In this document: piece after piece, positions 34,392-59,430 of the stretch
Numbering within the stretch: the stretch's first letter is position 1
How the letters are laid out: every line of letters starts with the position of its first letter
From: Spirochaetales bacterium
GTDB taxonomy: Bacteria; Spirochaetota; Spirochaetia; Treponematales; Treponemataceae
DNA length: 64,000 bases
Assembly: GCA_003252395.1 (NCBI GenBank)
Contig: QKEL01000009.1
Coordinates: forward strand, 496,001 to 560,000
Direction of reading: 5' to 3'
The notes under the pieces: generated by a model
Databases searched by the model: none
What the model saw: the letters and a program-made list of their open reading frames with translations, nothing else
Told to the model about the DNA's origin: nothing
Position numbers and translations under genes: made by a program

Positions 34392-34488
34392 CCCCGATGG
34401 AGCGGATGTCGTATAACGGCTATTACCCCAGCCTTCCAAGCTGGAGACGAGGGTTCGACTCCCTTCATCCGCTCTATCGGGGTTTTTT
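34392..34488 (+). terminator. Terminator formed around the tRNA-Gly
   Basis: CCCCGAT (34392-34398) just before the tRNA pairs with ATCGGGG (34476-34482) just after it, followed by T6. The pre-tRNA acceptor stem is thereby extended into a terminator-like structure that encloses the tRNA. Confidence 0.7.
34402..34473 (+). tRNA. tRNA-Gly (anticodon TCC)
   Basis: A 72-base cloverleaf: acceptor GCGGATG/CATCCGC, anticodon stem CCAGC/GCTGG with loop CTTCCAA (TCC), and T-arm AGGG-TTCGACT-CCCT. CCA is not encoded. It is the likely attachment site of the adjacent prophage, whose integrase begins 95 bases downstream. Confidence 0.95.
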
Positions 34489-34550: not shown

Positions 34551-34567
34551 AAGAATTGCATTTTATT

Positions 34568-35725
34568 ATGGCACACGGAAATTACGATCTTTACAAAAGA
34601 AAAACCTCAAAGAAAACAATTTATTACTATCGCGCATATCGAAGCGACGGAAGCCGAACCTCGGGGAGGTCAACCGGCCAAACCTCAGAGCGCGCGGCGC
34701 GGAAGTATTGCGAAGACCTATATAAATCGGGACTTCTCGTTCCGACGCCTTCAGTTCTATTTTCGACCTACGCACGCCCCTGGTTCAAGTGGGATGAATG
34801 CCCCTATGTGAAAGATCGACGTGCCTCCGGGACCCAGCGGCGCCCCGGAATAACGGCTGACTATGCCCGGCAGATGCGCGGGTATCTTACGAACCACATC
34901 CTACCATATTTCGCTTCTATACCGGTATCGAAGATCAACCCGGTCATGATCAGAAAATGGCGCCTATGGCTCAAGGAGGGGCGAGAGGAGGCCGGGAAAC
35001 CGGTCCCGGGGTTAACCAACAAATCAATAAACAACGTCGCCTCTGCGCTGAAAATCATGCTCGACTGGGCCCTAGCCGATGAGGTCATCCATAAGGACCC
35101 GTTCCGCGGGGTGAGCCAGCTCCTCGTGGACGACGATACCCGCGGAGCGTTTACCCTGGAACAAGTCGAAACCATTTTTCACGCGCCCTGGTCCTCATAC
35201 GATGCCTGGCTCTTTGCGCTCACGGCCGCTACTACCGGGATGCGCGAAGCCGAGGTGCGGGCGATCAGGCGCGAGACCCTGCACGAGCGATATATCGACG
35301 TCAATCTGCAATATAAGGCCGGCAAGGGCCTCGCGCCTCTAAAAACAAAGGATGAGCGCAAAGTGCCGATCTGCGACGCGTTATACCGGCTCCTTGATGC
35401 GCACACGGCGAATAAACGCTTTACCTTCGACGTCGGGGAAGGCGTTCCGATAGGGGTAAAATTCGCTACCACGAGATTCAGTGAAATAGTGAACGCGAAT
35501 TACAAAGAGGAAAAAGAGGAGGGCGGGCTTGTCTTCCATTCCCTCAGGCACTTCTTCAATACCTACCTCCAAGCCGAAAATGTCCCTGTAAACAAAGTTG
35601 ACGCCGTGATAGGGCATTCGAGCGGGAAGGGCAGCATGACGGCGCGATATACGGATTGGCGCCCCGAAATGTTCCCGGAAGTCTATGAGGCCCAAGAAAA
35701 ACTTTTAAATACCCTCTTGACATAA
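34568..35725 (+). CDS. int: Prophage tyrosine integrase
   Basis: A 385-residue phage integrase. It has an N-terminal arm-binding domain (basic, aromatic KKTIYYYRAY), a SAM-like core-binding domain (about 95-175), and a catalytic domain with Arg in TGMREAEV (about 225), HSLRH (about 330), GHSS and the nucleophile Tyr in ARYTDW. It inserts and excises the prophage at the adjacent tRNA. ATG 34568 is used; a TTG at 34556 is in frame. The last two sense codons (TTG ACA) double as the -35 of the next promoter. Confidence 0.93.
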   Translation: MAHGNYDLYKRKTSKKTIYYYRAYRSDGSRTSGRSTGQTSERAARKYCEDLYKSGLLVPTPSVLFSTYARPWFKWDECPYVKDRRASGTQRRPGITADYARQMRGYLTNHILPYFASIPVSKINPVMIRKWRLWLKEGREEAGKPVPGLTNKSINNVASALKIMLDWALADEVIHKDPFRGVSQLLVDDDTRGAFTLEQVETIFHAPWSSYDAWLFALTAATTGMREAEVRAIRRETLHERYIDVNLQYKAGKGLAPLKTKDERKVPICDALYRLLDAHTANKRFTFDVGEGVPIGVKFATTRFSEIVNANYKEEKEEGGLVFHSLRHFFNTYLQAENVPVNKVDAVIGHSSGKGSMTARYTDWRPEMFPEVYEAQEKLLNTLLT

Positions 35726-39076: not shown

Positions 39077-39148
39077 GGTTGGGTAGAGCAGCGGTAGCTT
39101 GGCGGCCTCATAAGCCGTAGGTCAGTGGCTCGAATCCACTCCCAGCCC
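39077..39148 (+). tRNA. tRNA with anticodon CAT (Met or Ile2)
   Basis: Acceptor GGTTGGG/CCCAGCC, D-arm GAGC/GCTT with GG in the loop, anticodon stem GCGGC/GCCGT with loop CTCATAA (CAT), and T-arm AGTGG-CTCGAAT-CCACT. The T-loop begins with C instead of T. Whether it reads AUG or, after lysidine modification, AUA cannot be told from sequence. Confidence 0.85.
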
Positions 39149-39298: not shown

Positions 39299-39372
39299 GC
39301 CAATTTAGCTCAGCTGGCCAGAGCACGTGATTTGTAATCTCGGGGTCCAGGGTTCGAATCCCTGAGTTGGCT
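39299..39372 (+). tRNA. tRNA-Thr (anticodon TGT)
   Basis: A canonical 74-base cloverleaf: acceptor GCCAATT/AGTTGGC, D-arm GCTC/GAGC, anticodon stem CGTGA/TCTCG (one T-T mismatch) with loop TTTGTAA, and T-arm CAGGG-TTCGAAT-CCCTG. Confidence 0.93.
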
Positions 39373-41473: not shown

Positions 41474-41589
41474 AAAAGGTAAAGCTTCGAAGAATAGCGC
41501 GCGAGGTTTTTGACTTCGCGGTAATCATACTCGCGGCCGGAATCGTTGTCGTAGTGCTTGCGGCTGAAACCATGGCGGTACTGGGATGA
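41470..41589 (+). CDS. Tiny membrane protein
   Basis: 39 residues with a basic N-terminus (MKKVKLRRIAREVFDF) and one membrane helix (AVIILAAGIVVVVLAAE). GTG start overlapping the preceding stop; stop overlapping the phosphatase ATG. Confidence 0.6.
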   Translation: MKKVKLRRIAREVFDFAVIILAAGIVVVVLAAETMAVLG

Positions 41590-42242
41590 ACCTGTTTCAG
41601 GAATACGAACCAAACAAAAAAGGCCGCGATTTTGTAGTTTCCGATATTCACGGATGCTATACCGATTTGCAAAATGAACTTGACCGATTGTCATTCGACG
41701 CCGTTAATGATCGTCTCTTTTCTGTTGGAGATCTCGCCGATCGCGGGCCTGAATCAAAAACCGCTCTCGAATTTATCAAGAACCCGTGGTTTTACCCCGT
41801 TCTCGGAAATCATGAAGAAATGTTTATACAATGCTGGATCGAACGGAACGAACCGATCGAATGGCATTGCCATAACGGAGGAGATTGGGCGCGTGAATTA
41901 TCTTTTTCAGAAAGAAAAGATTATGAAACAAGTTTATCAAAGCTTCCCTTGATTATTCGAATCGGGAAGGTTTTGATCTGCCACAGTCTGCTCCCTCGAC
42001 AAAAAATAGAGACCATTATCGCGAACATCGAACGTCTTCGCGAGTTCATTATCTGGCAGCGTGACGAAAGCTTTTTTGGTGGCCCTGATGGTTTTATTAC
42101 CTATGCCGGTCATACTATTCATTCTGAAATTACTCAATACGGAAACGTCCTTGATATTGATACCGGCGCTTTCTTGAAATATTGGCCCGGTCGTTCGGGA
42201 AAACTCACGATCGTTGAAATAACGAACGAGGAAACAAAATGA
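41586..42242 (+). CDS. Lambda-phosphatase-like serine/threonine metallophosphoesterase
   Basis: A 218-residue enzyme with all PPP-family metal motifs: SDIHGCY (about 19-25), GDLADRGPES (about 47-56), LGNHEE (about 73-78), and downstream His residues in VLICHSLL and YAGHTIHS. Phage lambda encodes a homologue in its early region. The substrate in the lysogen is unknown. Confidence 0.9.
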   Translation: MNLFQEYEPNKKGRDFVVSDIHGCYTDLQNELDRLSFDAVNDRLFSVGDLADRGPESKTALEFIKNPWFYPVLGNHEEMFIQCWIERNEPIEWHCHNGGDWARELSFSERKDYETSLSKLPLIIRIGKVLICHSLLPRQKIETIIANIERLREFIIWQRDESFFGGPDGFITYAGHTIHSEITQYGNVLDIDTGAFLKYWPGRSGKLTIVEITNEETK

Positions 42243-43792
42243 CCCCCCGCAAGCACCAGCGCGAAACCGCCGAACTCTGCCGAGAGATTCTTTCCGGCGC
42301 CCCGATTCGGGAAATCATCGAATCCGTCACTCCTGGCGGCGGGAAATCCTCACTTCCGGTTATCCTCGCGGAAAACCTAATCCCTGCGATCGCTGACCGG
42401 ATCTGCTGGATCGTTCCGCGCGACTCTCTCAAATACCAGGGAGAAGGCGAATTCCTCGAGCCGCGCTGGATGACGTCGAAGCGCATTCGCGCGGCCGATA
42501 ACGGAAACGACCTTTCACGGGGCACATGCGGCTATGTTACGACTTATCAGGCGGTCGGCGCGAATCCGGCTTGTCATGCCGAGGAATTCCGGAAGCATCG
42601 ATACATTCTTTTTCTCGACGAAGGTCATCATATCGCGCGCGGTTCCGAGTGGGAACGCGCCGTCGCGCCGCTCGTCGAGTCCGCGGTCCTCGTCGTCCAC
42701 GCCTCCGGGACACTTTCCCGCGGCGACGGCGAAAAGATCGCTTTCCTTCCGTACAAAAACGGAGAGCTTGACCTCGACGAGAGCGATTCCCGGCGCGTTA
42801 TCAAGTATTCCCGTTCTGACGCGATCCGCGACGGTGCGATCCTCAAGGTCGGATTTTCGCTTCTCGACGGTGAGGCAGAATGGGAAGAACTCGACGGAAT
42901 GAAGGGAACCTCGAGGCTTTCTGGCGAAGAATCCGCGAAGGCTCTTTTCACCGCACTGAGGACCGATTTCTCGAAACACCTAATCGACGCGACCATGCTC
43001 GATTTTCACAAGGAATTACTCGTCTATCCCGCGGCAAAAATGCTCGTCGTCGCACCGAATATCGAAGTAGCTCAAACCTACGCGAACTACCTTTTCGGGC
43101 TCGGAAAGGACGTTCAAATCGCAACGTCGGACGATGGAGTTATCGCGAAACGAAGAATCGACGACTTCAAGCGGGGCGTCTACAAGATCCTCGTAACGGT
43201 GGCCATGGCCTATGAAGGCCTCAACGTTCCGGAAATCACCCATATTTGCAGCTTGACCCATATTCGCTCGGTTCCCTGGCTCGAGCAAATGATCGCGCGC
43301 GCGAATCGTCTCGCGCCCGGAAAAACTCGCGCCGTCGTTTTCGCGCCGGCAGATCACCAGTTCAAACGCGCGCGGAAGATGATCGAGGCCGAGCAGCTTG
43401 TTCCCCTTGCAAACCCCGAGGATCAACTCGAACTTTCTTCTGAAACCAAAAAGCGAGGCGAGGGCTCAGGCGAAGCCCGGCCGTGGATCATTCCGGTCGG
43501 CTCGAAGGCTCTCGACGGCTCAACCCCGTCCGCAAGCGCGCCCGCGGCGACCAATGCGCCGCCCTGTAGCCACTCCGAAGCGGAAAAAATCCTCCGGAAG
43601 AACATTCACGCGCACATTACGGACGTTCTTGAGCCCGTAAATAACGGGTCGAAGCTCGCGATCCAGAAAATACTATACCGCCGCATGCGGCTTCAAGTTC
43701 CGAAGCCGGTAGCGGACATGAGCGTTAAAGAGCTCGAGAAGGTTTGGGTTTGGTTGAGAGAGGAATATCCGACTAAGGGAGGGATTTTATAA
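42239..43792 (+). CDS. Phage SF2 helicase
   Basis: A 517-residue DEAD/DEAH helicase: P-loop TPGGGKSS (about residues 30-37), DEGHH box (about 127-131), motif III VHASGT, and C-terminal helicase motifs VAMAYEGLNVPEITHICSLT and MIARANRLAPG. A Pro/Ser/Ala-rich linker separates a small helical C-terminal domain (about 450-517). It probably serves phage replication or repair. ATGA overlap with the phosphatase. Confidence 0.88.
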   Translation: MTPRKHQRETAELCREILSGAPIREIIESVTPGGGKSSLPVILAENLIPAIADRICWIVPRDSLKYQGEGEFLEPRWMTSKRIRAADNGNDLSRGTCGYVTTYQAVGANPACHAEEFRKHRYILFLDEGHHIARGSEWERAVAPLVESAVLVVHASGTLSRGDGEKIAFLPYKNGELDLDESDSRRVIKYSRSDAIRDGAILKVGFSLLDGEAEWEELDGMKGTSRLSGEESAKALFTALRTDFSKHLIDATMLDFHKELLVYPAAKMLVVAPNIEVAQTYANYLFGLGKDVQIATSDDGVIAKRRIDDFKRGVYKILVTVAMAYEGLNVPEITHICSLTHIRSVPWLEQMIARANRLAPGKTRAVVFAPADHQFKRARKMIEAEQLVPLANPEDQLELSSETKKRGEGSGEARPWIIPVGSKALDGSTPSASAPAATNAPPCSHSEAEKILRKNIHAHITDVLEPVNNGSKLAIQKILYRRMRLQVPKPVADMSVKELEKVWVWLREEYPTKGGIL

Positions 43793-48498: not shown

Positions 48499-49515
48499 AT
48501 GGGTAATGAAAACGCACTTGCGATAATTGAGAGGGCGCAGAAATCCGGAGCCCTCGTATTCGTGAACCAGGAAAACTTTCAATCGAAGGTTGAGCTCTAC
48601 AAAACCGAGGCGACGGTCATTCAGGCGCGTCCTGACGAATTTCACAATCTCCAGGGAAAATTTATGCCGAATCGGCCCGTTACCGACAGGATCGGCGAAG
48701 CGGCAGGCGTTGAGTTCGTATCCGGGCACGTTCGCTCCGAGATGCGCGACGACGCGATCGCAGGGCGCCGTACGGTTTTCATCGGAACCGCCCAGGGCAA
48801 GGTCAGGATGCCCGATGGACACTGGCGTATGAGCGCGATCGAAGAGTACGAGTTCGATCCCGTTCTTCGCGCGATGCTCGATAAGAAAATCGACTACATC
48901 ACCGAAACAAATCGCTCCGTTTTCGCCCGCGCCGCCATGGAGTATACCAAGGTCGCGACTCAGCGTGCCGCCACCGGGGCCCGGCTTCGCGTGATACGCC
49001 AGCTCACCGGGATGCCGACAGCTTTCAGTGCCGAAGACATGAAGCGCCCGCTGGTTTTCACAAGGACCGTGCTCAACACCGAGCATATCCTCGACACCAA
49101 GGAGGGCCGGACTCTCGCGACTATGCAAGCCCTCGGGATGAACACGGAAGCCCTTTACGGGAAGCGCTCCGACCCTGAAGAGCACGTTGAGCAACTCCCG
49201 AAGAGCAGCGAACCCGAGGACGAAGACCTAAAACAAGCTGATACCTCGCTCTCCAGCGAAGAATTGGCCGCACTCGCTGACAAGGCCACCGGAGGGCAGG
49301 GGGGAATCCAGGGCGAATTCGAGGAACTGACCGTCCAGCTCGAAGCCCTGGTCGAATCGAATAAGGAGCTCCTCGACGTGACGCTCCCGAGTAAGATCAA
49401 CCCGTACCAGAAAGCGAAGGAAGAACTCGAGAACTTCGCCGCGGACGTGGAATCCCGCAGGGCCATGATCAAGCGGACGTCCGACTTTATCGAGAAAACG
49501 AGGAACAGACCGTGA
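48499..49515 (+). CDS. Candidate single-strand annealing protein (unproven)
   Basis: 338 residues, unknown family. After a mixed alpha/beta half, the segment AMEYTKVATQRAATGARLRVIRQLTGMPTAF (about 155-185) has the A-x-T-x-A-x-x-R-x-I-x-x-L-x-G pattern seen near the end of several phage annealing-protein cores. The last 100 residues are acidic and coiled-coil-like. It overlaps the SbcD-SbcC fusion, and SSB follows, which is the usual place for an annealing partner of a phage exonuclease. This is an inference only. A perfect AAAGGAG site precedes the ATG. Confidence 0.45.
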   Translation: MGNENALAIIERAQKSGALVFVNQENFQSKVELYKTEATVIQARPDEFHNLQGKFMPNRPVTDRIGEAAGVEFVSGHVRSEMRDDAIAGRRTVFIGTAQGKVRMPDGHWRMSAIEEYEFDPVLRAMLDKKIDYITETNRSVFARAAMEYTKVATQRAATGARLRVIRQLTGMPTAFSAEDMKRPLVFTRTVLNTEHILDTKEGRTLATMQALGMNTEALYGKRSDPEEHVEQLPKSSEPEDEDLKQADTSLSSEELAALADKATGGQGGIQGEFEELTVQLEALVESNKELLDVTLPSKINPYQKAKEELENFAADVESRRAMIKRTSDFIEKTRNRP

Positions 49516-52500
49516 AAATACTCCATACCGCGGACATTCACACCCGCAAGGAAAATGAGCGCGAGGTCATTACTTCGCTTCGCGAGATTCGGGAAGCCCA
49601 GGTCAAAAATCGCGTTGATCTCGTCGCAATTGCCGGAGACTGGGGCGACGCCGCTATCCAAAATACCGAGCAGGGCGGTCTTGACCGCTTCCTGGGAGAA
49701 CTCCAGGCGATGGCGAACGAATGCCCCGTAGTTATGGTCGAAGGAACACCGAGCCACGACGTAGACGGCTCGCTAGAGGTGATCAAACGCCTCGACACGA
49801 AGTACGGAATCACGATTCTCGAACCGGGAAAGCCGTATTTTCTCTCGAAACACAAAATTGAGGGATGTATCGGAGTTGTAGATCGTCTCGGCGAGTTCGA
49901 CGATCCTTCGCTCCTCATTCTCGGCATCCCTGAGCCTCGGAAGAAATACCTTCTCGCGAACGGTACGGCCGGGAAGGACGCTACCGAAGAGGCTATACGC
50001 ACCGCGATGAAGCAGTTTTGCTTCCAGCTTGCCGCAATCCGAAAGCAGTATGCCGACCTCCCGTGCCTCGTCGTCTACCACGGCGACGTCGCTGGAACGA
50101 CGCTACAGAACGACCAGACGATCGAGCGCGGGACGGGAATCGCGATCACGATCGACGACCTTGCCTCGATCGGCGCGGACTATTACGCGCTCGGCCACAT
50201 CCACAAGCCTCAGCAGATCGGGAGTCTCCCGGCGTATTACGCTGGATCGGCCTACGCGAAGAACTTCGGAGAAGCGCACAAGCCAGGATGCAACCTGGTG
50301 GAATTGATCGACAAAAGGTTTTCGCCCACCACTCCGAATGATCTTTTCAACTATGCGACGGGCTGGGAGGCGAAAGTCACCCGCATCGACTTCTCGCACC
50401 CGCAGAATATAAAAATCTGCCTGAAAAAGAACGAAAACTATTCTCTCGAGCAAGTAAAAGGAAAGCGCGTCTGGGTTGAAATCTCCTGCAAGAAGGAGGA
50501 TCAAGCGCTTTTCGATCCTGAACAGGTTCTTCGCGATGTTCTCGCCGCCGGCGCCGTCCAGGGCTCACGGGTGACCGTGGCGCTCGAGGCCGTCGAGACC
50601 GTGCGCGCGGCAGAAATTTCCGGGGTCCTTATAACCCCTGAGAAAAAGTTCGAGATTTGGGCTGAACAGTCCGCGCTTCCCGTAACCGCTTCGCTCCGAT
50701 CCAAGGTAAAGGACCTTTCCCTTGAATGCCAGCACTCGGGCGTATCGGTTTCGGGTGAATGGGCCCTCGTCTCGGTCCGGCTCCGAGGCTCAATCGGGAT
50801 CTGGAAGGGCATCCGTAAGGACGAGATTTTCGTCAACTTCGACGAGTTCGATGACGGCCTGATCGCGCTTTCCGGCAAAAACGGGAAGGGGAAGACGACC
50901 TTCATCGAAAACTGCCACTCCTACCCGCAGCTCCTTACCCGCAAGGGTACGCTCAAGGAGCACTTCCGGCTCCGCGACTCGTTCCGCGAGGTCATCTACC
51001 GCGACGTTTCTACCGGCGCCGAGAAGCGCTTCCTGATCCAGATCGACGGCTACACGAAGTCGGGCGGATCGAAATACTTCATCTTCGACCGGGCCCCGGG
51101 CGATACCGAGTGGACTCCCGCCGCGGGCATCGACGGAAACCTCGACCCATACAAGGAAGCCGTCCAGGCGGTCTTCGGGCCTCTCGAACTCTACCTCCGG
51201 ACCGCGTTCATCACGCAGCGCCCGAACAAGGACGCGCCCGACCTCACGGAAGCGACGAAAACCGAGAAGAAGATGCTATTCGCGAACCTCGCCGGCATCG
51301 ACTACCTCCAGAAATTCGCCGATACCGCGAAGGAAAACGCCGACAAGACGGCCGCGGAGAGCCACGACGCCGAGATAAAGATCGGGATGCTCGAGCTGTC
51401 GGTTGAAAGTAAATCGCGCGTCATGGAGGACATGGCAATCACGCAGGACTTCCACGATAAGACGGCAGAGACCATCGAAACCGTGAAAACCGACGGTACC
51501 GCGGCGAAGAACCTGGTCGAGAAGCTGCAGATCGCTGCCAATGCCGAGCGGGCCCGGGCGCAACGCGTGAACGAGGTCGAATTCTCTCTTAACCGCCTCG
51601 GACAGGAACTTGCCGAAACCGCGGCCTCGATTGAGGCTCTCACTGTCCTTTCGGAGCACCGGAGCGCGATAGAATCCGAAATATCCCGTTACGAGGCCCT
51701 CAAGGCGACGATTGAGACCGAAACCGAGAAGCTCCGCGCGGTTGAAAAGCGGAACCAGGACGCGACGACCAATTATCGCGAGAAACTCGACGCTTTCAAC
51801 GCAAAAAAGAGAGATATCGACGAAAAAATCGCCGCGGCCCGCCTTTCCATGACCAAGGCCGAGAACGAAGCGGATAAAATCACCAGGGTAATATCTTTCG
51901 CCCGCTCCGCTGCCCCCGAAATCGAAGACTCTTGCCCCACGTGCGGCCAAAAACTCCCCGCGGCGAAAATCGAAGAATTGACCAAGGCGCGCGAGGAAGC
52001 CCTACAACGCATCGAATTACTCGAAAACGATGCAAATACCAAAGACGCGGAAATTGCTTCAATTCGGGCCGCTCTCGACGAGCTCGTCGCGGATTTGGCT
52101 GGTATCGAGTATGAAGAACCGACAAAACCGGCGCCGATTCCCTTCGACGAAACGATCCTTTCGAGCGCACGTACCCAAGCCGGCGCAATCCGTATCGACG
52201 AGCTCCGCGCGAACCTCACCCGGGCGACCGAGGCTTCGGCCAGAATCGACGGATACAAGGCGCAGATCGCCGAAAAGAACCGGCAGATCGTTGAAAAGCA
52301 GGGCGAACTCGATGAGCTTCTTCGCAATGCGAACCCGGACGCGCTTACCGACCTCGAGCTCTCGAAAAAGGAGCTGGCCGACCTCACCGAGAAGTACCGG
52401 ACGCTTACGGCAGACCTCGCGTCGAGCGAAGCCTCTCTCGACGCGCAGAAGAAACGCCTTGCCGAGATCGAAGCGTCGGAAGCCGAGCTCAAATCGCTCC

Positions 52501-53078
52501 GGGAGTCGGTCAAAACCGCGAAAACGGAATTCGCCGAGTGGGACCTCCTTCGCCGCGCGTTCGGCCCGGACGGGATTCAAGCCCTCGAACTCGATGCCTT
52601 GGCGCCCGGGATCGCTCAGGTCGCGAACGATATTCTCATGGCGTCCTTCGGCGACCGCTTCCGGATCGAGTTCCAGACGACGCGCATGGCCGGCGCCGGT
52701 AAAAATACGAAACAGGTCGAGGACTTCCTGATTTACGTCATCGACACGCTCGATGGCGAGGCAACGCTCCTCGAGAACAAGTCGGGCGGCGAGGCGGTCT
52801 GGATCAAGCGGGCGATTTACTCCGCGTTCGCGATCATCAGGTCCAGGAATACTGGCTTCCGATTCCTCACGTCGTTCCAGGATGAAGCCGACGGCGCGCT
52901 CGACTCGGCTTCCAAGGTTGCGTATTGCGACATGCTCGGAGCGGAACACGAGACCGCGAAGCTCAAGCATACGATCATCATCACGCACTCGGAGGAAGTG
53001 AAGGCCATGATCGACCAGAAGATCGACATGGAATCGTTCGCGGAAGAGAAGGAGAAAGACGGGGAGGAAGTGGCATGA
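49512..53078 (+). CDS. Single-chain SbcD-SbcC (Mre11-Rad50) fusion
   Basis: 1188 residues. The N-terminal Mre11-like nuclease (1 to about 330) has DIH (8-10), GDWGD (about 46-50), GTPSHD in place of the usual GNHD, HGD and GHIH. Then an SMC/Rad50 ATPase: Walker A GKNGKGKTT (about 454-462), long coiled coils on both sides of a zinc hook CPTC (808-811), signature KSGGE (about 1090) and a Walker-B-like stretch ending QDEADGALD (about 1123). The two subunits of the usual complex are thus covalently joined. GTG start overlapping the preceding gene. It likely processes double-strand ends during phage replication. Confidence 0.88.
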   Translation: MKILHTADIHTRKENEREVITSLREIREAQVKNRVDLVAIAGDWGDAAIQNTEQGGLDRFLGELQAMANECPVVMVEGTPSHDVDGSLEVIKRLDTKYGITILEPGKPYFLSKHKIEGCIGVVDRLGEFDDPSLLILGIPEPRKKYLLANGTAGKDATEEAIRTAMKQFCFQLAAIRKQYADLPCLVVYHGDVAGTTLQNDQTIERGTGIAITIDDLASIGADYYALGHIHKPQQIGSLPAYYAGSAYAKNFGEAHKPGCNLVELIDKRFSPTTPNDLFNYATGWEAKVTRIDFSHPQNIKICLKKNENYSLEQVKGKRVWVEISCKKEDQALFDPEQVLRDVLAAGAVQGSRVTVALEAVETVRAAEISGVLITPEKKFEIWAEQSALPVTASLRSKVKDLSLECQHSGVSVSGEWALVSVRLRGSIGIWKGIRKDEIFVNFDEFDDGLIALSGKNGKGKTTFIENCHSYPQLLTRKGTLKEHFRLRDSFREVIYRDVSTGAEKRFLIQIDGYTKSGGSKYFIFDRAPGDTEWTPAAGIDGNLDPYKEAVQAVFGPLELYLRTAFITQRPNKDAPDLTEATKTEKKMLFANLAGIDYLQKFADTAKENADKTAAESHDAEIKIGMLELSVESKSRVMEDMAITQDFHDKTAETIETVKTDGTAAKNLVEKLQIAANAERARAQRVNEVEFSLNRLGQELAETAASIEALTVLSEHRSAIESEISRYEALKATIETETEKLRAVEKRNQDATTNYREKLDAFNAKKRDIDEKIAAARLSMTKAENEADKITRVISFARSAAPEIEDSCPTCGQKLPAAKIEELTKAREEALQRIELLENDANTKDAEIASIRAALDELVADLAGIEYEEPTKPAPIPFDETILSSARTQAGAIRIDELRANLTRATEASARIDGYKAQIAEKNRQIVEKQGELDELLRNANPDALTDLELSKKELADLTEKYRTLTADLASSEASLDAQKKRLAEIEASEAELKSLRESVKTAKTEFAEWDLLRRAFGPDGIQALELDALAPGIAQVANDILMASFGDRFRIEFQTTRMAGAGKNTKQVEDFLIYVIDTLDGEATLLENKSGGEAVWIKRAIYSAFAIIRSRNTGFRFLTSFQDEADGALDSASKVAYCDMLGAEHETAKLKHTIIITHSEEVKAMIDQKIDMESFAEEKEKDGEEVA

Positions 53079-53812: not shown

Positions 53813-54127
53813 ATGATAAAAGCAGAAACAGTGAGAGGTATCGACCGTATCTATCGCGAGATAGAAGCAGGAGAAAAACTCCTCGGCGAGGTCGATGAGC
53901 AAATAAGCAAGGCAACCGAAAGAATCGGATTCCATGGTGAACCGCAAACAACAGCACGTCCGTGTCAACTTGGATGGCCTGACCGTGACGGGTATCGAAT
54001 CTATAACGTCGAACCGATCATTGCTCGGGCCGTAATCGTTGCGCACCTCTCAGATCAGCGCGCGAAGCTCGAGAAACTGAACGAGATCGCGCGACTCGAG
54101 GTCCTGAGCGAGGATAACCATGGCTGA
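53813..54127 (+). CDS. Small prophage protein upstream of ssb
   Basis: 104 residues: a helical N-terminus (IDRIYREIEAGEKLLGEVDEQISKATERIG), a middle stretch with DRDGYRIYNVEPIIARAVI, and a helical C-terminus. Unknown. Its end overlaps ssb by eight bases. Confidence 0.6.
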   Translation: MIKAETVRGIDRIYREIEAGEKLLGEVDEQISKATERIGFHGEPQTTARPCQLGWPDRDGYRIYNVEPIIARAVIVAHLSDQRAKLEKLNEIARLEVLSEDNHG

Positions 54128-54572
54128 CGTAAACCACGTAATCCTGATCGGCCGGCTTACCCGAGACGCCGAACTCAAGTATACCTCAGGGGGGATGGCC
54201 GTTTGCAAGTTCGCTATCGCGGTCAACAAACGCCGGAAGCAAGGCGAGCAATGGGTCGAGGAAGCCAATTTCTTCGATATCGTCCTCTGGGGACGGTCAG
54301 GCGAATCCCTGAATCAGTACCTGGTGAAGGGAAAACAGGTTGCCGTCGAGGGTGAACTGCATCAGAACCGCTGGGAGCAGGACGGGCAAGCACGGTCAAA
54401 GATCGAGATCATGGCGAATAATGTGCAGCTTCTCGGAGGCCAAGGACAGCCGCAAACCGGCGCAAATGCTTCGGGATACCAGGGAACCTCGGGAAACGCA
54501 AATTCGGGCACGTCTCGTAGCGATCAGGGCGATTCCGGGCCGCCTGACTACCCGGATGATATTCCGTTTTAG
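54120..54572 (+). CDS. ssb: Single-stranded DNA-binding protein
   Basis: 150 residues: OB fold beginning NHVILIGRLTRDAELKYTSGG, then FFDIVLWGRSGESLNQYLVKGKQVAVEGELHQNRWEQDG (about 50-90). A Gly/Gln/Ser-rich linker follows, and the acidic tip DYPDDIPF that recruits partner proteins. It is a phage copy, distinct in context from the chromosomal ssb. A terminator follows. Confidence 0.95.
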   Translation: MADVNHVILIGRLTRDAELKYTSGGMAVCKFAIAVNKRRKQGEQWVEEANFFDIVLWGRSGESLNQYLVKGKQVAVEGELHQNRWEQDGQARSKIEIMANNVQLLGGQGQPQTGANASGYQGTSGNANSGTSRSDQGDSGPPDYPDDIPF

Positions 54573-55275: not shown

Positions 55276-55570
55276 CAACAGCTTCGACCTGACACGCTAT
55301 GGTTCTCAATAAAACCTATGATACCTGAAATTGATTTTACAAAATAAACCGCATTGTATCGGGTTGTAAAGCCTAACGGAAATGAAGTCCACCAATACAA
55401 TCCGTTTATAACGGTATTCTTAAATGTATATCTAAAATTGATTTTACTGGCAAAAATGCCCAAACATTTGTTCTTGATTGATTTTGATTCTCGTGATGAT
55501 TATGTATTCGATCAATCGATTCTGGCGGACCGGTTGACGAAAAACGCGTAAGGCGCGTAATTTTATGAGA
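55276..55570. other. AT-rich intergenic stretch with a direct repeat
   Basis: About 295 bases without a convincing gene. AAATTGATTTTAC occurs twice (about 55329-55341 and 55435-55447) with a related ATTGATTTTGATT near 55477. A 65-codon TTG frame at 55354-55551 has no ribosome-binding site. This may be a control region ahead of the replication gene. Confidence 0.4.
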
Positions 55571-55646
55571 GGATTTCACGATACCAGGGCGGCGCCTTAC
55601 GCCTCCCGAACACCCCGCCAGGTGGGTATCGTGAAGTCCTTTTTTT
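55571..55646 (+). terminator. Long-stem terminator before the replication gene
   Basis: GGATTTCACGATACC (55571-55585) pairs with GGTATCGTGAAGTCC (55625-55639) in a 15-pair stem with one wobble, followed by T7. The 39-base loop is GC-rich and can fold further (GGGCGG with CCCGCC). It separates the AT-rich region from the O-like gene. Confidence 0.85.
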
Positions 55647-55678
55647 ATGTCAGAAATTATTTTCCGTGGGAGGGAAAC

Positions 55679-56647
55679 ATGGCAACACAGCGATATATTT
55701 CAACATCGTTTTGGGATGATGAATGGGTCCATAAGCTCGATCCTTCAGAGAAATTGCTTTACATGTACTTCATGACGAACACCCTTACCAACATTGCCGG
55801 GGTGTATAAAATATCGGTAAACCGCATTTCTTTTGATACCGGATTCAACGAAAACACCATCCAGCACATCATGGATAAGTTTGAAAAATCCGGAAAAGTA
55901 CACCGTCACAACGAATACGTCGCTCTTCCTTCTTGGCCGAAGCATCAGAAGTGGCAAGTCAAGAAAACCATTTGCGAAGGCATCGTAAGCATACTCAACG
56001 ACCTCGACGATGACACCTTCAAATGGCTTTTCCATACAGGATATAGATTTGATTTTTCCCTGACACGCCATTCAGGGGATATCCTACCCATACCATACCC
56101 ATATCCTACCCCTACCATACCCATACCACCCGATACCGCCTCATATGACCCGAGCTATTCTGATTTAAATTCTGATTTAAATTCTGATTTAAATTCTGAT
56201 TCTGATTTGGATATAGATTCTTCGCCGGAAAATCCGGCTCAGGAGTATTCTCATCAGAAACCTTTTCAACGTTTTAACATTCCGGCTAACGACGCAAGAT
56301 CGCGTATTGAGCCTCTTCGAAGAACATGGAACGCCCTCGGGCTTCCAGAATCTCGAATATCCGTTACTGCGTCGCCTGGCCAAAATTCAGAGAGCCTCGT
56401 CTTCTTGCAATACTATTCTGACGATGAGATTACAAAGGCCATGCAGAACTATAAGCGGATCATTTCAGAACCAGAGTTTGATCTTCCCGTTCAATTCCAG
56501 TACAAAACCTTTTATTCGTTCATGGGAAAAGGCGTTGAAAAATTTGCCGACGGAGCAAAGCCGTTTGAATATTATAAAAAACGAGAGTCACAAGGTAGCG
56601 TAAAAAAACAACACCTCGTAACGAATCTTGAAGGTATTGAGTTTTAG
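55679..56647 (+). CDS. Lambda-O-like replication initiator
   Basis: 322 residues. The N-terminal winged-helix-like domain (about 1-120: YISTSFWDDEWVHKLDPSEKLLYMYFMTN, then GVYKISVNRISFDTGF) is common in phage replication proteins. A low-complexity linker (about 135-185) encoded by tandem DNA repeats joins it to a C-terminal domain (about 200-322). As in lambda, the repeats may be the origin. ATG 55679 follows GGGAGGG; an upstream in-frame start lies inside the terminator and is rejected. Confidence 0.75.
   Translation: MATQRYISTSFWDDEWVHKLDPSEKLLYMYFMTNTLTNIAGVYKISVNRISFDTGFNENTIQHIMDKFEKSGKVHRHNEYVALPSWPKHQKWQVKKTICEGIVSILNDLDDDTFKWLFHTGYRFDFSLTRHSGDILPIPYPYPTPTIPIPPDTASYDPSYSDLNSDLNSDLNSDSDLDIDSSPENPAQEYSHQKPFQRFNIPANDARSRIEPLRRTWNALGLPESRISVTASPGQNSESLVFLQYYSDDEITKAMQNYKRIISEPEFDLPVQFQYKTFYSFMGKGVEKFADGAKPFEYYKKRESQGSVKKQHLVTNLEGIEF
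56081..56124 (+). repeat. Two 22-base tandem repeats inside the O-like gene
   Basis: Copies at 56081-56102 and 56103-56124 differ at one base (unit begins ATCCTACCC and ends ACCATACCCAT). One strand is C-rich. They encode the IPYPYPTPTIPIPP linker and are candidate initiator-binding iterons. Confidence 0.75.
56159..56208 (+). repeat. 12-base AT-rich tandem repeats inside the O-like gene
   Basis: TCTGATTTAAAT is repeated three times without error (56159-56194), followed by two partial copies to 56208. They encode SDLNSDLNSDLNSDSDLD. Lying 35 bases after the 22-base repeats, they would suit an easily melted origin segment. Confidence 0.75.
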
Positions 56648-57548: not shown

Positions 57549-58169
57549 ATGCCGGCACCGAAAACGACAAAAAAGGCTAAAAAGTCAACAAAAACGACGA
57601 AACCGGCAGGTAAGGCTTCGACGAAAGTGAAAAAGCCCGCGGTCGAGGAGAAGAAGAAGAGGGGAAGGCCGAGAACTCGCCCGATAAAACCTCCGCGGCC
57701 GGCAGAAGCAAAGCCTATTGGTTCCCCGACGAAATACCGCAAAGCATACGACGAACAGGCGTATAAGCTTTGTTTGCTTGGATGCGTTGATTCAGAACTC
57801 GCGGAATTCTTCGAAGTCGAGGAATCGACGATTAACAACTGGAAGCTCGAATTCCCGTCGTTTTTGGAGTCCTTACGGCGGGGTAAAAAAATTGCCAACG
57901 CCGAAGTCGCTGCTTCGCTTTTTAAGCGCGCTACAGGGTTTGAGAAAAAAGATTCGGTCAAGATTTTTATGCCGGCGAACTCGAAGACTCCGGTTTACGC
58001 GAAATACACCGAGTATTTTCCTCCCGATGCCTCAGCGGCCTTCCGCTTCCTCATGAACCGGGAACCAGAAAAATGGCGCGACAAACGTGAAGTGAAACTC
58101 GAAGGCATGCCTGAGATCGGCGTACTTCTCGATCTACCGAAAGACGGGGAATCGGATGATGGTCACTAA
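57549..58169 (+). CDS. terS: Terminase small subunit with a Lys-rich N-terminal tail
   Basis: 206 residues. Residues 1-60 are Lys/Thr/Pro-rich and include the AT-hook-like RGRPRTRP. The core PTKYRKAYDEQAYKLCLLGCVDSELAEFFEVEESTINNWKLEFPSFLESLRRGK (about 60-115) is the terminase-small HTH, followed by FLMNREPEKWRDKREVKLEG. It recognises the packaging site. Its end overlaps terL by 14 bases. Confidence 0.88.
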   Translation: MPAPKTTKKAKKSTKTTKPAGKASTKVKKPAVEEKKKRGRPRTRPIKPPRPAEAKPIGSPTKYRKAYDEQAYKLCLLGCVDSELAEFFEVEESTINNWKLEFPSFLESLRRGKKIANAEVAASLFKRATGFEKKDSVKIFMPANSKTPVYAKYTEYFPPDASAAFRFLMNREPEKWRDKREVKLEGMPEIGVLLDLPKDGESDDGH

Positions 58170-59430
58170 AACTGAAACGCAATCCCGTCGTGGGGAGGCT
58201 CCTAATCGAAAGCTCATGCGTCTTTCCAGGCCGCAATCCCTCGTGTTCGCGAATAAAGCGCGTTTCAAGGTTCTTAACGCGGGAAGGCGTTTCGGCAAAA
58301 CCTTCCTCGCGATCATCATGCTTTTCATCTGGGCGAATCAGCATGCGGGTGCGATCTGCTGGTATGTGGCGCCGACATATCGCATGGCCGAGCAAATTGC
58401 CTGGGACGAGCTGAAGCGCCAAGTTCCGGAGCAATACGTCTCGCATAAGGACGAATCGGACCTTTCGATTACGCTTTTGAATGGGTCCATAATTGCGCTC
58501 CGCGGTTCTGATAATCCCGACGCGCTCCGCGGGCCCGGGCTCGACGCCCTGGTGCTCGACGAGTGCGCGTTCCAAAAGCCCGAGGTTTGGAAGGTTCTCC
58601 GTGCGGCTCTTTCGGATAAAGAAGGCTGGTGCCTCTTTATCTCGACGCCAAAAGGATACAACTGGTTCTACGACCTCTATTGCGCGGCCGAGGATCGTAA
58701 GGGCTGGAAAAGGTTCCAGTTCACCACGCTCGACGGCGGAAACGTCAGCGCGGAAGAAGTTGAAGACGCGAAGGCCGAGCTCGATGATCGGACTTTTAAG
58801 CAGGAATACCTCGCGTCCTTTGAAACGCTCACCGGCAGGGTATACTACAACTTCTCGCGCGAGCTCAATAAGACCGAGTACGAGGTTACCCAGGCGCCCA
58901 TTCTCGTTGGTATGGATTTCAACGTAAACCCGATGACCGCAACGATCGCTCAGCGCGCCGGTACGCAGCTTATTTTCATCGACGAAATCGTGATAGCCGA
59001 CGGAAACACCGAAATGATGGCGCAGGAAATTAGGAAGCGATATCCAAAACACGCGATATCGGTCTACCCAGATCCAACCGGGAACCGAAGACAGACGAAT
59101 GCGCCAGCGGGCCAGACTGATTTTACGATTCTGCGATCTCATGGATTTACCGTTCTTGCGCCAACGAAGCCGTATTCTACCGCGGATAAAATAAACACGG
59201 TAAACGCAGCGCTGTGTAATGCGAAAGGCGTCCGACGGGTACTCGTGAAAAGCGGGACCTGTCCACTTCTTTGCAAGGGCTGGGACGGGTATTGCTATAA
59301 GGACAACACGGGGATACCGGATAAATCAGGCGGCCTTGATCACGAAACCGACGCGGCCGCGTATCTCATAAATTACGAGCTGCCTATTGTGGGGCGCGGA
59401 TTGACCGTCGGGTCATATACGGGAGCATAA
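58156..59430 (+). CDS. terL: Terminase large subunit
   Basis: 424 residues: ATPase with Walker A NAGRRFGKT (about 40-48) and Walker B ALVLDECAF (about 133-141). The nuclease domain carries metal-binding aspartates in LVGMDFNVNP (about 253-262), SVYPDPTGNR and GGLDHETDAAAYLINY. It cleaves and pumps DNA into the prohead. ATG 58156 and 58159 are both possible. Confidence 0.93.
   Translation: MMVTKTETQSRRGEAPNRKLMRLSRPQSLVFANKARFKVLNAGRRFGKTFLAIIMLFIWANQHAGAICWYVAPTYRMAEQIAWDELKRQVPEQYVSHKDESDLSITLLNGSIIALRGSDNPDALRGPGLDALVLDECAFQKPEVWKVLRAALSDKEGWCLFISTPKGYNWFYDLYCAAEDRKGWKRFQFTTLDGGNVSAEEVEDAKAELDDRTFKQEYLASFETLTGRVYYNFSRELNKTEYEVTQAPILVGMDFNVNPMTATIAQRAGTQLIFIDEIVIADGNTEMMAQEIRKRYPKHAISVYPDPTGNRRQTNAPAGQTDFTILRSHGFTVLAPTKPYSTADKINTVNAALCNAKGVRRVLVKSGTCPLLCKGWDGYCYKDNTGIPDKSGGLDHETDAAAYLINYELPIVGRGLTVGSYTGA

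What the first reader, a model, noticed from the sequence alone, without database searches (positions are those of the whole stretch)
49512..53078. Prophage-encoded single-chain Mre11-Rad50 (SbcD-SbcC) fusion
The two subunits of the usual nuclease-ATPase complex are one 1188-residue protein with no internal stop. All expected parts are visible: nuclease motifs, Walker A, zinc hook CPTC and SGGE signature. The nuclease motif usually written GNHD reads GTPSHD, losing the metal-binding Asn position, so activity may differ from cellular SbcD. I know of phage systems with two separate genes (T4 46/47, T5 D12/D13) but not of a routine fusion.
Basis: partly seen in the sequence, partly recalled or inferred. 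Interest (0 to 1): 0.82.

Follow-up and report, generated by a model that had tools for sequence, protein, structure and literature searches.

The report
Phage single-chain SbcD-SbcC fusion module
A prophage in a spirochaete-group bacterium carries a DNA-end-processing nuclease and its ATPase motor as one protein, next to a probable DNA-annealing partner; fusions of this sort have been described since 2011, so this is a new branch of a known kind rather than a new kind of machine.

Summary
Window 49512-53078 is one open 1188-codon frame joining an SbcD/Mre11 nuclease to an SbcC/Rad50 ATPase. It is no assembly accident: 28 distinct fused relatives were found and the junction is under purifying selection. 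It lies in a ~49.8 kb prophage with tRNA-Gly att repeats; the host has its own separate pair.

Fused Mre11/Rad50 proteins, one in a Bacillus phage, were described in 2011 (PMC3175470). And GTPSHD is no local lesion: GT[PK][STA]HD occurs in 28 of 29 fused proteins and GTxSH[DE] in the nearest unfused relatives.

Its predicted fold most resembles RAD52/ERF annealing proteins, weakly, and profile comparison gives no support. Best reading: a phage recombination module of resection nuclease, annealing protein and SSB. All evidence is computational; no activity is shown.

The parts
48499..49515 (+). Conserved upstream partner, 338 aa, phrog_13782 (no known function); predicted RAD52/ERF-like annealing protein
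   Evidence: Upstream on the same strand in 28 of 29 distinct fused loci, the 29th (L047) having only 440 bases upstream; fold search; no profile support
49512..53078 (+). Single-chain SbcD-SbcC (Mre11-Rad50) fusion, 1188 aa, GTG start, overlaps the stop of the upstream gene by 4 bases
49512..50306 (+). Nuclease domain, residues 1-265
   Evidence: TIGR00619 matches 1-256; Foldseek to SbcD/Mre11
49743..49760 (+). Variant nuclease motif III GTPSHD, residues 78-83 (GNHD in canonical SbcD)
50307..50738 (+). Cap region and helix-loop-helix (model helices 376-386 and 393-409), residues 266-409
   Evidence: AlphaFold2 secondary structure; naming as cap/HLH is by analogy with SbcD
50739..50753 (+). 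Short linker, residues 410-414, between the last SbcD helix and the first SbcC strand
   Evidence: unfused relatives end and start their two genes at about the matching place
50754..51302 (+). ATPase N-lobe, residues 415-597, with Walker A 455-463 and Q-loop Q569
51303..52559 (+). Coiled-coil arms, residues 598-1016, about 200 residues each way
51933..51944 (+). Zinc-hook CPTC, residues 808-811
   Evidence: CxxC in 28 of 29 fused proteins, absent in L039
52575..53075 (+). ATPase C-lobe, residues 1022-1188, with SGGE 1091-1094, Walker B 1124-1125, H-loop 1158-1159
54120..54572 (+). Single-strand DNA-binding protein (SSB)
   Evidence: Pfam PF00436 9.8e-33, phrog_44 2.2e-46
42239..43792 (+). ResIII/Helicase_C helicase; same family in 17 of 38 loci examined
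55565..56647 (+). DnaD-like helicase loader / replisome organiser
   Evidence: phrog_6251 7.6e-19
34556..35725 (+). Tyrosine integrase
   Evidence: phrog_1 2.1e-42, PF00589 5.5e-13
34451..34482 (+). One att copy: 32-bp repeat over the 3' end of tRNA-Gly (34402-34474); the other copy is at C1:580229-580260, outside the window
57549..59430 (+). Terminase small (57549-58169) and large (58156-59430) subunits
   Evidence: phrog_309 1.8e-42, phrog_2 1.2e-52

Best explanation
The protein is a phage-lineage SbcD-SbcC whose two subunits became one chain, probably by loss of the stop/start overlap between two adjacent genes. It probably works as a dimer like SbcCD: the SbcC heads bind DNA ends and ATP, the hooked coiled coils tether, and the fused nuclease opens blocked, hairpin or broken phage DNA ends and resects them to single strands. 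The upstream gene product, probably a RAD52/ERF-type annealing protein made in step by translational coupling, then anneals the exposed strands with the phage SSB, giving RecA-independent recombination, concatemer formation and repair during lytic growth. Shown by computation: the fusion, its family, the gene pair, the prophage, the motif pattern. Inferred: dimerisation, nuclease activity, annealing activity, coupling, biological role. Metal site 1 looks intact; metal site 2 has Ser/Thr in place of Asn, so metal or substrate preference may differ.
For: Frame and domains. Model with mean pLDDT 81.6: nuclease, cap, helix pair, 5-residue linker, Rad50 head and coils; Foldseek rows include 7zr1_D of the C. 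thermophilum Mre11-Rad50-Nbs1 complex (1.4e-16; 780 residues, taken to be Rad50), SbcD (7yzp_A 6.5e-13) and SbcC (7yzp_C 3.2e-8). Invariant in 28 aligned fused proteins (28 of the 29): D8, H10, D43, H82, H190, H231, K461, S1091-G1093, D1124, E1125. Partner upstream in 28 of 29, overlapping in 22 of 28. Partner fold: 20 of the 50 PDB rows shown are RAD52, including the first 7; of the 9 rows with a functional name among the first 30 BFVD rows, 8 are ERF, RAD52 or RecT. SSB and helicase nearby. Two-gene relatives with an ATGA overlap: L048, L060, L061, L134. SSAP genes beside exonuclease or ssb genes are common in phages, and sak4 with sbcC occurs in several streptococcal phages (PMC8093625, passages).
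Against: Partner: best PDB E-value 7.0e-3, none at or below 0.001; RAD52 rows have TM 0.14-0.21 by query and the first three an rmsd of about 19; LptE chains also rank high. The six BFVD rows at or below 0.001 have no functional name. Profile comparison with ERF and RAD52 alignments scores no better than 11 other phage families. 0 of 23 members match an SSAP model in Pfam. One partner homologue (L152) is followed by another gene, not the fusion. Fusion: pTM 0.44, so domain arrangement is uncertain; several curated cut-offs not reached; canonical Asn absent, motif V His is Asp in 6 of 29. Weak Lamassu LmuB matches.
Confidence: 0.6

Rival explanations
1. The fusion is an SbcCD-like hairpin/palindrome or end-clearing enzyme acting alone (removing protein-blocked or folded ends at stalled phage forks); the upstream gene has another role and is linked only by shared expression.
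For: All SbcCD parts present; an E. coli SbcCD hairpin-bound structure is among the best fold matches (7yzp); the partner's annealing role lacks profile support.
Against: Constant linkage and frequent stop/start overlap with one partner family over a deep tree, including unfused relatives L048, L050 and L061, suggests joint function.
Confidence: 0.2
2. The nuclease site is inactive or strongly reduced (motif III without Asn); the protein is mainly a DNA-end tether or clamp that recruits other enzymes.
For: The residue before the motif III His is Ser in 20, Thr in 7, Ala in 1 and Arg in 1 of 29; motif V His is Asp in 6 of 29.
Against: The remaining ligand positions and the catalytic His (H82) are invariant in 28 aligned rows, and the nuclease domain is under purifying selection, pN/pS 0.227 against L021; a decaying site would not be expected to keep them.
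Confidence: 0.12
3. It is a prophage-carried defence or superinfection-exclusion ATPase-nuclease, related in function to Lamassu-type SMC systems.
For: PADLOC matches to LmuB, best 1.6e-11, through the head and coiled coil; Lamassu and Wadjet chains among the Foldseek rows.
Against: Those matches lie in the SMC-like part; the SbcC PHROG is far stronger (2.8e-33); the gene sits in a block with SSB, helicase and DnaD-like genes. Neighbours other than the upstream gene were not scanned for defence genes.
Confidence: 0.06

Closest known systems
Mre11/Rad50 (SbcD/SbcC) fusion proteins of Yoshida, Claverie and Ogata 2011 (Mimivirus R555, C. kluyveri plasmid, Deferribacter megaplasmid, Bacillus phage 0305phi8-36)
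   Same: Same order of domains in one chain; cap/HLH-length segment kept in most; found on viruses and plasmids; cellular hosts mostly keep a separate pair; R555 too has Asp for a motif V His (PMC3175470, parts 1-3 of 5 read)
   Different: A term search of its main text finds no spirochaete, prophage, GTPSHD, annealing or Rad52. The published fusions were not placed on my tree, so kinship is untested
Cellular SbcCD (E. coli, T. maritima)
   Same: Nuclease, cap, helix pair, ATPase, zinc hook and fold
   Different: Two genes; GNHD in 81 of 84 other nuclease ORFs examined against GT[PK][STA]HD in 28 of 29 here
Phage two-gene SbcC/SbcD pairs (phrog_77, phrog_100; T4 46/47 and T5 D12/D13 not compared here)
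   Same: Phage-encoded; T4 46/47 act in recombination-dependent replication (as stated in PMC3175470)
   Different: Two chains there
Phage SSAP-exonuclease pairs (lambda Red, RecET; gene patterns in PMC8093625, passages)
   Same: Adjacent annealing protein and end-resecting nuclease
   Different: Nuclease here is an ATP-driven SbcCD type; the partner matches no SSAP sequence family
Leptospira phage LE1 gp76-gp75-gp74
   Same: Partner homologue (1.3e-8), SbcD and SbcC in the same order, ATGA overlap
   Different: Unfused; GNHD motif

Membership tests
SbcD/Mre11 nuclease | Five phosphoesterase motifs with metal ligands | tested here: inconclusive
   DxH, GD, H190, H231 and the motif III His-Asp conserved; motif III Asn replaced by Ser/Thr/Ala/Arg in 29 of 29; H229 is Asp in 6 of 29
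SbcD/Mre11 nuclease | Sequence-family score | tested here: inconclusive
   TIGR00619 9.1e-15 but 55.1 of 77.65 bits; PF00149 22.9 over 21.5; phrog_100 in 17 of 28 members
SbcD/Mre11 nuclease | Fold | tested here: met
   Foldseek 3thn TMt 0.73, 7yzp_A TMt 0.63
SbcC/Rad50 ATPase | Walker A, Q-loop, SGGE signature, Walker B, H-loop | tested here: met
   K461, Q569, S1091-G1093, D1124, E1125 invariant in 28 rows; H-loop His is Gln in 3 of 29 (L004, L038, L039)
SbcC/Rad50 ATPase | Coiled coil with CxxC hook at its tip | tested here: met
   CxxC in 28 of 29, at the turn of the model's coils; Pfam hook model below cut-off
SbcC/Rad50 ATPase | Family score and fold | tested here: met
   phrog_77 2.8e-33, and 27 of 28 aligned members match it; 7yzp_C 3.2e-8, TMt 0.58; Pfam SMC_N below its cut-off
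Mre11/Rad50 fusion proteins (2011) | Both parts in one uninterrupted chain, nuclease first | tested here: met
Mre11/Rad50 fusion proteins (2011) | Common descent with the published fusions | not tested
   The paper finds its fusions not monophyletic; none was put on the tree
RAD52/ERF annealing proteins (upstream gene) | Fold | tested here: inconclusive
   RAD52/ERF rows lead, but E above 0.001 in PDB and TM low
RAD52/ERF annealing proteins (upstream gene) | Sequence-profile similarity | tested here: not met
   hhalign at background for ERF and RAD52 (Sak3 not compared); no SSAP Pfam model in 23 members
RAD52/ERF annealing proteins (upstream gene) | ssDNA annealing, ring or helix assembly | not testable with these tools
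   needs biochemistry
Temperate tailed phage (prophage) | Integrase, att repeats at a tRNA, packaging genes | tested here: met
Lamassu (LmuB) defence ATPase | LmuB family together with LmuA/LmuC genes | tested here: inconclusive
   LmuB matches in the SMC-like part only, none in the upstream gene; other neighbours not scanned

The most novel reading that the evidence does not exclude
phrog_13782 is an unrecognised RAD52-fold annealing-protein family that pairs almost obligately with a phage SbcD-SbcC, and the pair is a two-gene recombination machine in which fusion plus translational coupling fix the ratio of resection to annealing and in which metal site 2 of the nuclease (Ser/Thr instead of Asn) has been retuned for phage DNA ends.
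Probability: 0.4. Interest if true: 0.6.

Novelty: new variant of a known kind. Interest (0 to 1): 0.42.

Why it matters
It offers a single-chain version of a near-universal DNA-break enzyme, with an active-site variant kept over a deep phage lineage, and a constant neighbour that may be a new annealing-protein family. Fixed stoichiometry would ease structural work on Mre11-Rad50 and on how end resection is handed over to strand annealing. The fusion itself is not new.

Tried and rejected
Assembly artefact or frameshift: rejected by 28 other distinct fused proteins and selection over the junction. Motif III as damage in this protein: rejected. Fusion replacing the host pair: rejected, the host has a 441-aa GNHD SbcD over the family cut-off and beside it a frame with CPVC that I take for SbcC by eye. 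RNA intron in L040: Rfam shows nothing up to E 0.1; the interruption is an HNH gene. Partner as PF18897 Gp3-like (the gene upstream on plasmid L132): hhalign gives no similarity. Partner to ERF or RAD52 by profile: no support. The Acinetobacter 'phage' match spanning both genes is two separate genes. Fusion arising more than once: L044 branches with unfused relatives, but holding all fused together is only marginally rejected (p-AU 0.0425) and L044 is a long branch. Paper searches for a characterised fusion enzyme, the motif or this lineage gave, besides PMC3175470, nothing on it that I recognised; the other papers were seen as listings only, apart from passages of PMC8093625. The partner finds no match by tblastn in 50,697 phage records.

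Full report
Observation. The frame 49512-53078 is open for 1188 codons from a GTG that overlaps the TGA of the gene before it, with GAGGA a few bases upstream. Databases agree on SbcD followed by SbcC: phrog_100 8.6e-8 over residues 1-338 and phrog_77 2.8e-33 over 576-1174, TIGR00619 9.1e-15 though under its cut-off, Metallophos just over its cut-off, SMC_N and the zinc-hook model under theirs.

Is it real? tblastn against 50,697 phage records gives 8 records, none covering 80% of the query; a second fused query gives 7 records, none at 80%. In IMG/VR a search with a four-member alignment gave 31 loci, of which 24 carry the full fusion (L022 is identical to the window's protein); the other 7 are split (L040, L048, L050, L051), cut at a contig end (L041, L043) or show the nuclease only (L052). 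Of 79 loci from bacterial genomes, 7 carry the fusion (L053-L059; 6 of the 7 bins are named as spirochaetes), two an adjacent pair (L060, L061), and the other 70 gave no fused ORF. With the window and the genome relatives there are 37 fused ORFs; 8 exact duplicates were dropped, leaving 29 distinct proteins. The host family holds it sporadically: 5 of 195 genomes at E <= 1e-30, the window's own included, as expected of a prophage gene. Uncorrected pN/pS is 0.29, 0.30 and 0.43 over the gene and 0.24, 0.30 and 0.43 over codons 330-450 against L021, L003 and L024; pS is high, so the ratios are rough.

Where it sits. A tRNA-Gly (34402-34474) is followed by a tyrosine integrase (34556-35725), and a 32-bp repeat over the tRNA's 3' end (34451-34482) recurs at C1:580229-580260; the window is C1:496001-560000, so the element is about 49.8 kb. 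It holds a helicase, SSB, DnaD-like loader, terminase and head genes. The organism is in the genus of Spirochaetales bin Spiro_09 (L003 and L053 are the same protein on contigs of equal length, 23,964 bases). Its own SbcD (441 aa, GNHD; 166.9 bits) and an adjacent frame with CPVC, taken for SbcC by eye, lie elsewhere on the same contig.

Active site. Motif III reads GT[PK][STA]HD in 28 of 29 fused proteins (residue before His: Ser 20, Thr 7, Ala 1) and GYRHD in one (the pattern missed L045, which one search shows). HMMER aligns GTPSHD to a canonical motif with a two-residue insertion. The nearest unfused relatives have GTPSHD or GTASHD (L048, L050, L060, L061) or GTFSHE (plasmids L132, L133); two large phages have GTKTHD and GTRTHD (L147, L148); L051, L052 and L134 have GNH[DE], and 81 of 84 other nuclease ORFs have GNHD. 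So the change marks a phage/plasmid lineage and probably precedes the fusion. From established knowledge of Mre11 (recalled), Asp8, His10, Asp43 and His231 would hold metal 1 and Asp43, the motif III Asn, His190 and His229 metal 2: the metal 1 set is invariant in 28 aligned rows, while metal 2 has lost Asn in 29 of 29 and His229 is Asp in 6 of 29. Mimivirus R555 also has an Asp for a motif V His (PMC3175470). Whether this changes activity is not known.

Structure and junction. The AlphaFold2 model (28 of the 29 proteins in its alignment; pLDDT 81.6, pTM 0.44) has nuclease, cap, two helices at 376-386 and 393-409, then only five residues to the first Rad50 strand at 415. Foldseek's leading rows are Mre11-Rad50 complex chains, SbcD and other SMC-type proteins. 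In the unfused relatives L048 and L061 the two genes meet in an ATGA overlap at about the matching place, as they do in L060 and L134. The tree (38 rows; L051 was left out) puts 28 of the 29 fused proteins, with L040, on one side of a branch (support 90/96, not starred) and L044 among the unfused ones. L040 is a secondary split by an HNH gene. The tree has long branches and an outgroup of one row.

The partner. The gene 48499-49515 belongs to phrog_13782 (23 of 23 members scanned match), with no Pfam domain worth naming. It is upstream of the fusion in 28 of 29, the exception L047 having only 440 bases upstream; 22 of 28 overlap its stop codon and 6 lie 17-517 bases away, some with a small ORF between. 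It also precedes the unfused pairs in L048, L050, L061 and Leptospira phage LE1 (1.3e-8). In 392 genomes of the phylum only 2 have it at E <= 1e-10, one being the window's own; the other (L152) is followed by a different gene. Its model (pLDDT 82.9) has a helix, a sheet of long strands and helices carrying the conserved K151, TGA 159-161 and R164. In PDB, RAD52 fills ranks 1-7 and 20 of the 50 rows shown, best E 7.0e-3, with low TM-scores and LptE as a competing hit. In BFVD, ERF, RAD52 or RecT names make up 8 of the 9 rows with a functional name among the first 30, though the six best rows are unnamed. Against it, profile comparison with ERF (14 members) and RAD52 (6 members) alignments from genomes of the same phylum is no better than with 11 other phage families. 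I therefore call it a probable annealing protein on fold and context only.

Mechanism and novelty. The simplest reading is a recombination module: an ATP-driven resection nuclease, an annealing protein and SSB. Annealing-protein genes beside exonuclease or ssb genes are common in phages (PMC8093625, passages). The fusion as such was described in 2011 (PMC3175470, parts 1-3 of 5 read); a term search of its text finds no spirochaete, prophage, annealing or RAD52. Searches for a characterised enzyme, the motif or this lineage in print showed nothing more that I recognised, in an open-licence library only. I rate it a new variant of a known kind.

Noticed in passing
L040:2819-3310: A phage copy of the fusion gene is interrupted near the end of the nuclease part by an HNH endonuclease gene (phrog_1271 4.5e-10, PF01844), so the fused gene has become two genes again.
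   Followed up: partly
L132 and L133 (Burkholderia and Cupriavidus plasmids): 57 plasmid records match a fused query, the SbcC part being involved in all 25 rows shown. In the two loci read, SbcD (GTFSHE) and SbcC are separated by a 171-173-aa gene; the gene upstream in L132 is PF18897 Gp3-like.
   Followed up: partly
L149 (MT837445.1): An unannotated human-gut phage scaffold has a single 1156-codon frame, open at its 5' end, matching the fusion model from position 148 to 1162 with gaps.
   Followed up: partly
L134 (NC_048892.1): Leptospira phage LE1 gp76, annotated as a hypothetical protein with a peptidase note, is a homologue of the partner gene.
   Followed up: partly
L001 (CAKLQH020000030.1): A record named Acinetobacter phage MD-2021a holds hemB, dadA, pilT and an sbcD-sbcC pair in the stretch read; it looks like bacterial chromosome.
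   Followed up: no
window 41586-42242: NinI-like serine/threonine phosphatase (phrog_246 4.4e-55) beside the helicase in the prophage.
   Followed up: no
window 39077-39148 and 39299-39372: Two tRNA genes (Met, Thr) inside the prophage.
   Followed up: no
L152:984-1616: A partner-gene homologue at the start of a contig is followed, with a 4-base overlap, by a gene that looks like a homing endonuclease by eye instead of the fusion.
   Followed up: no
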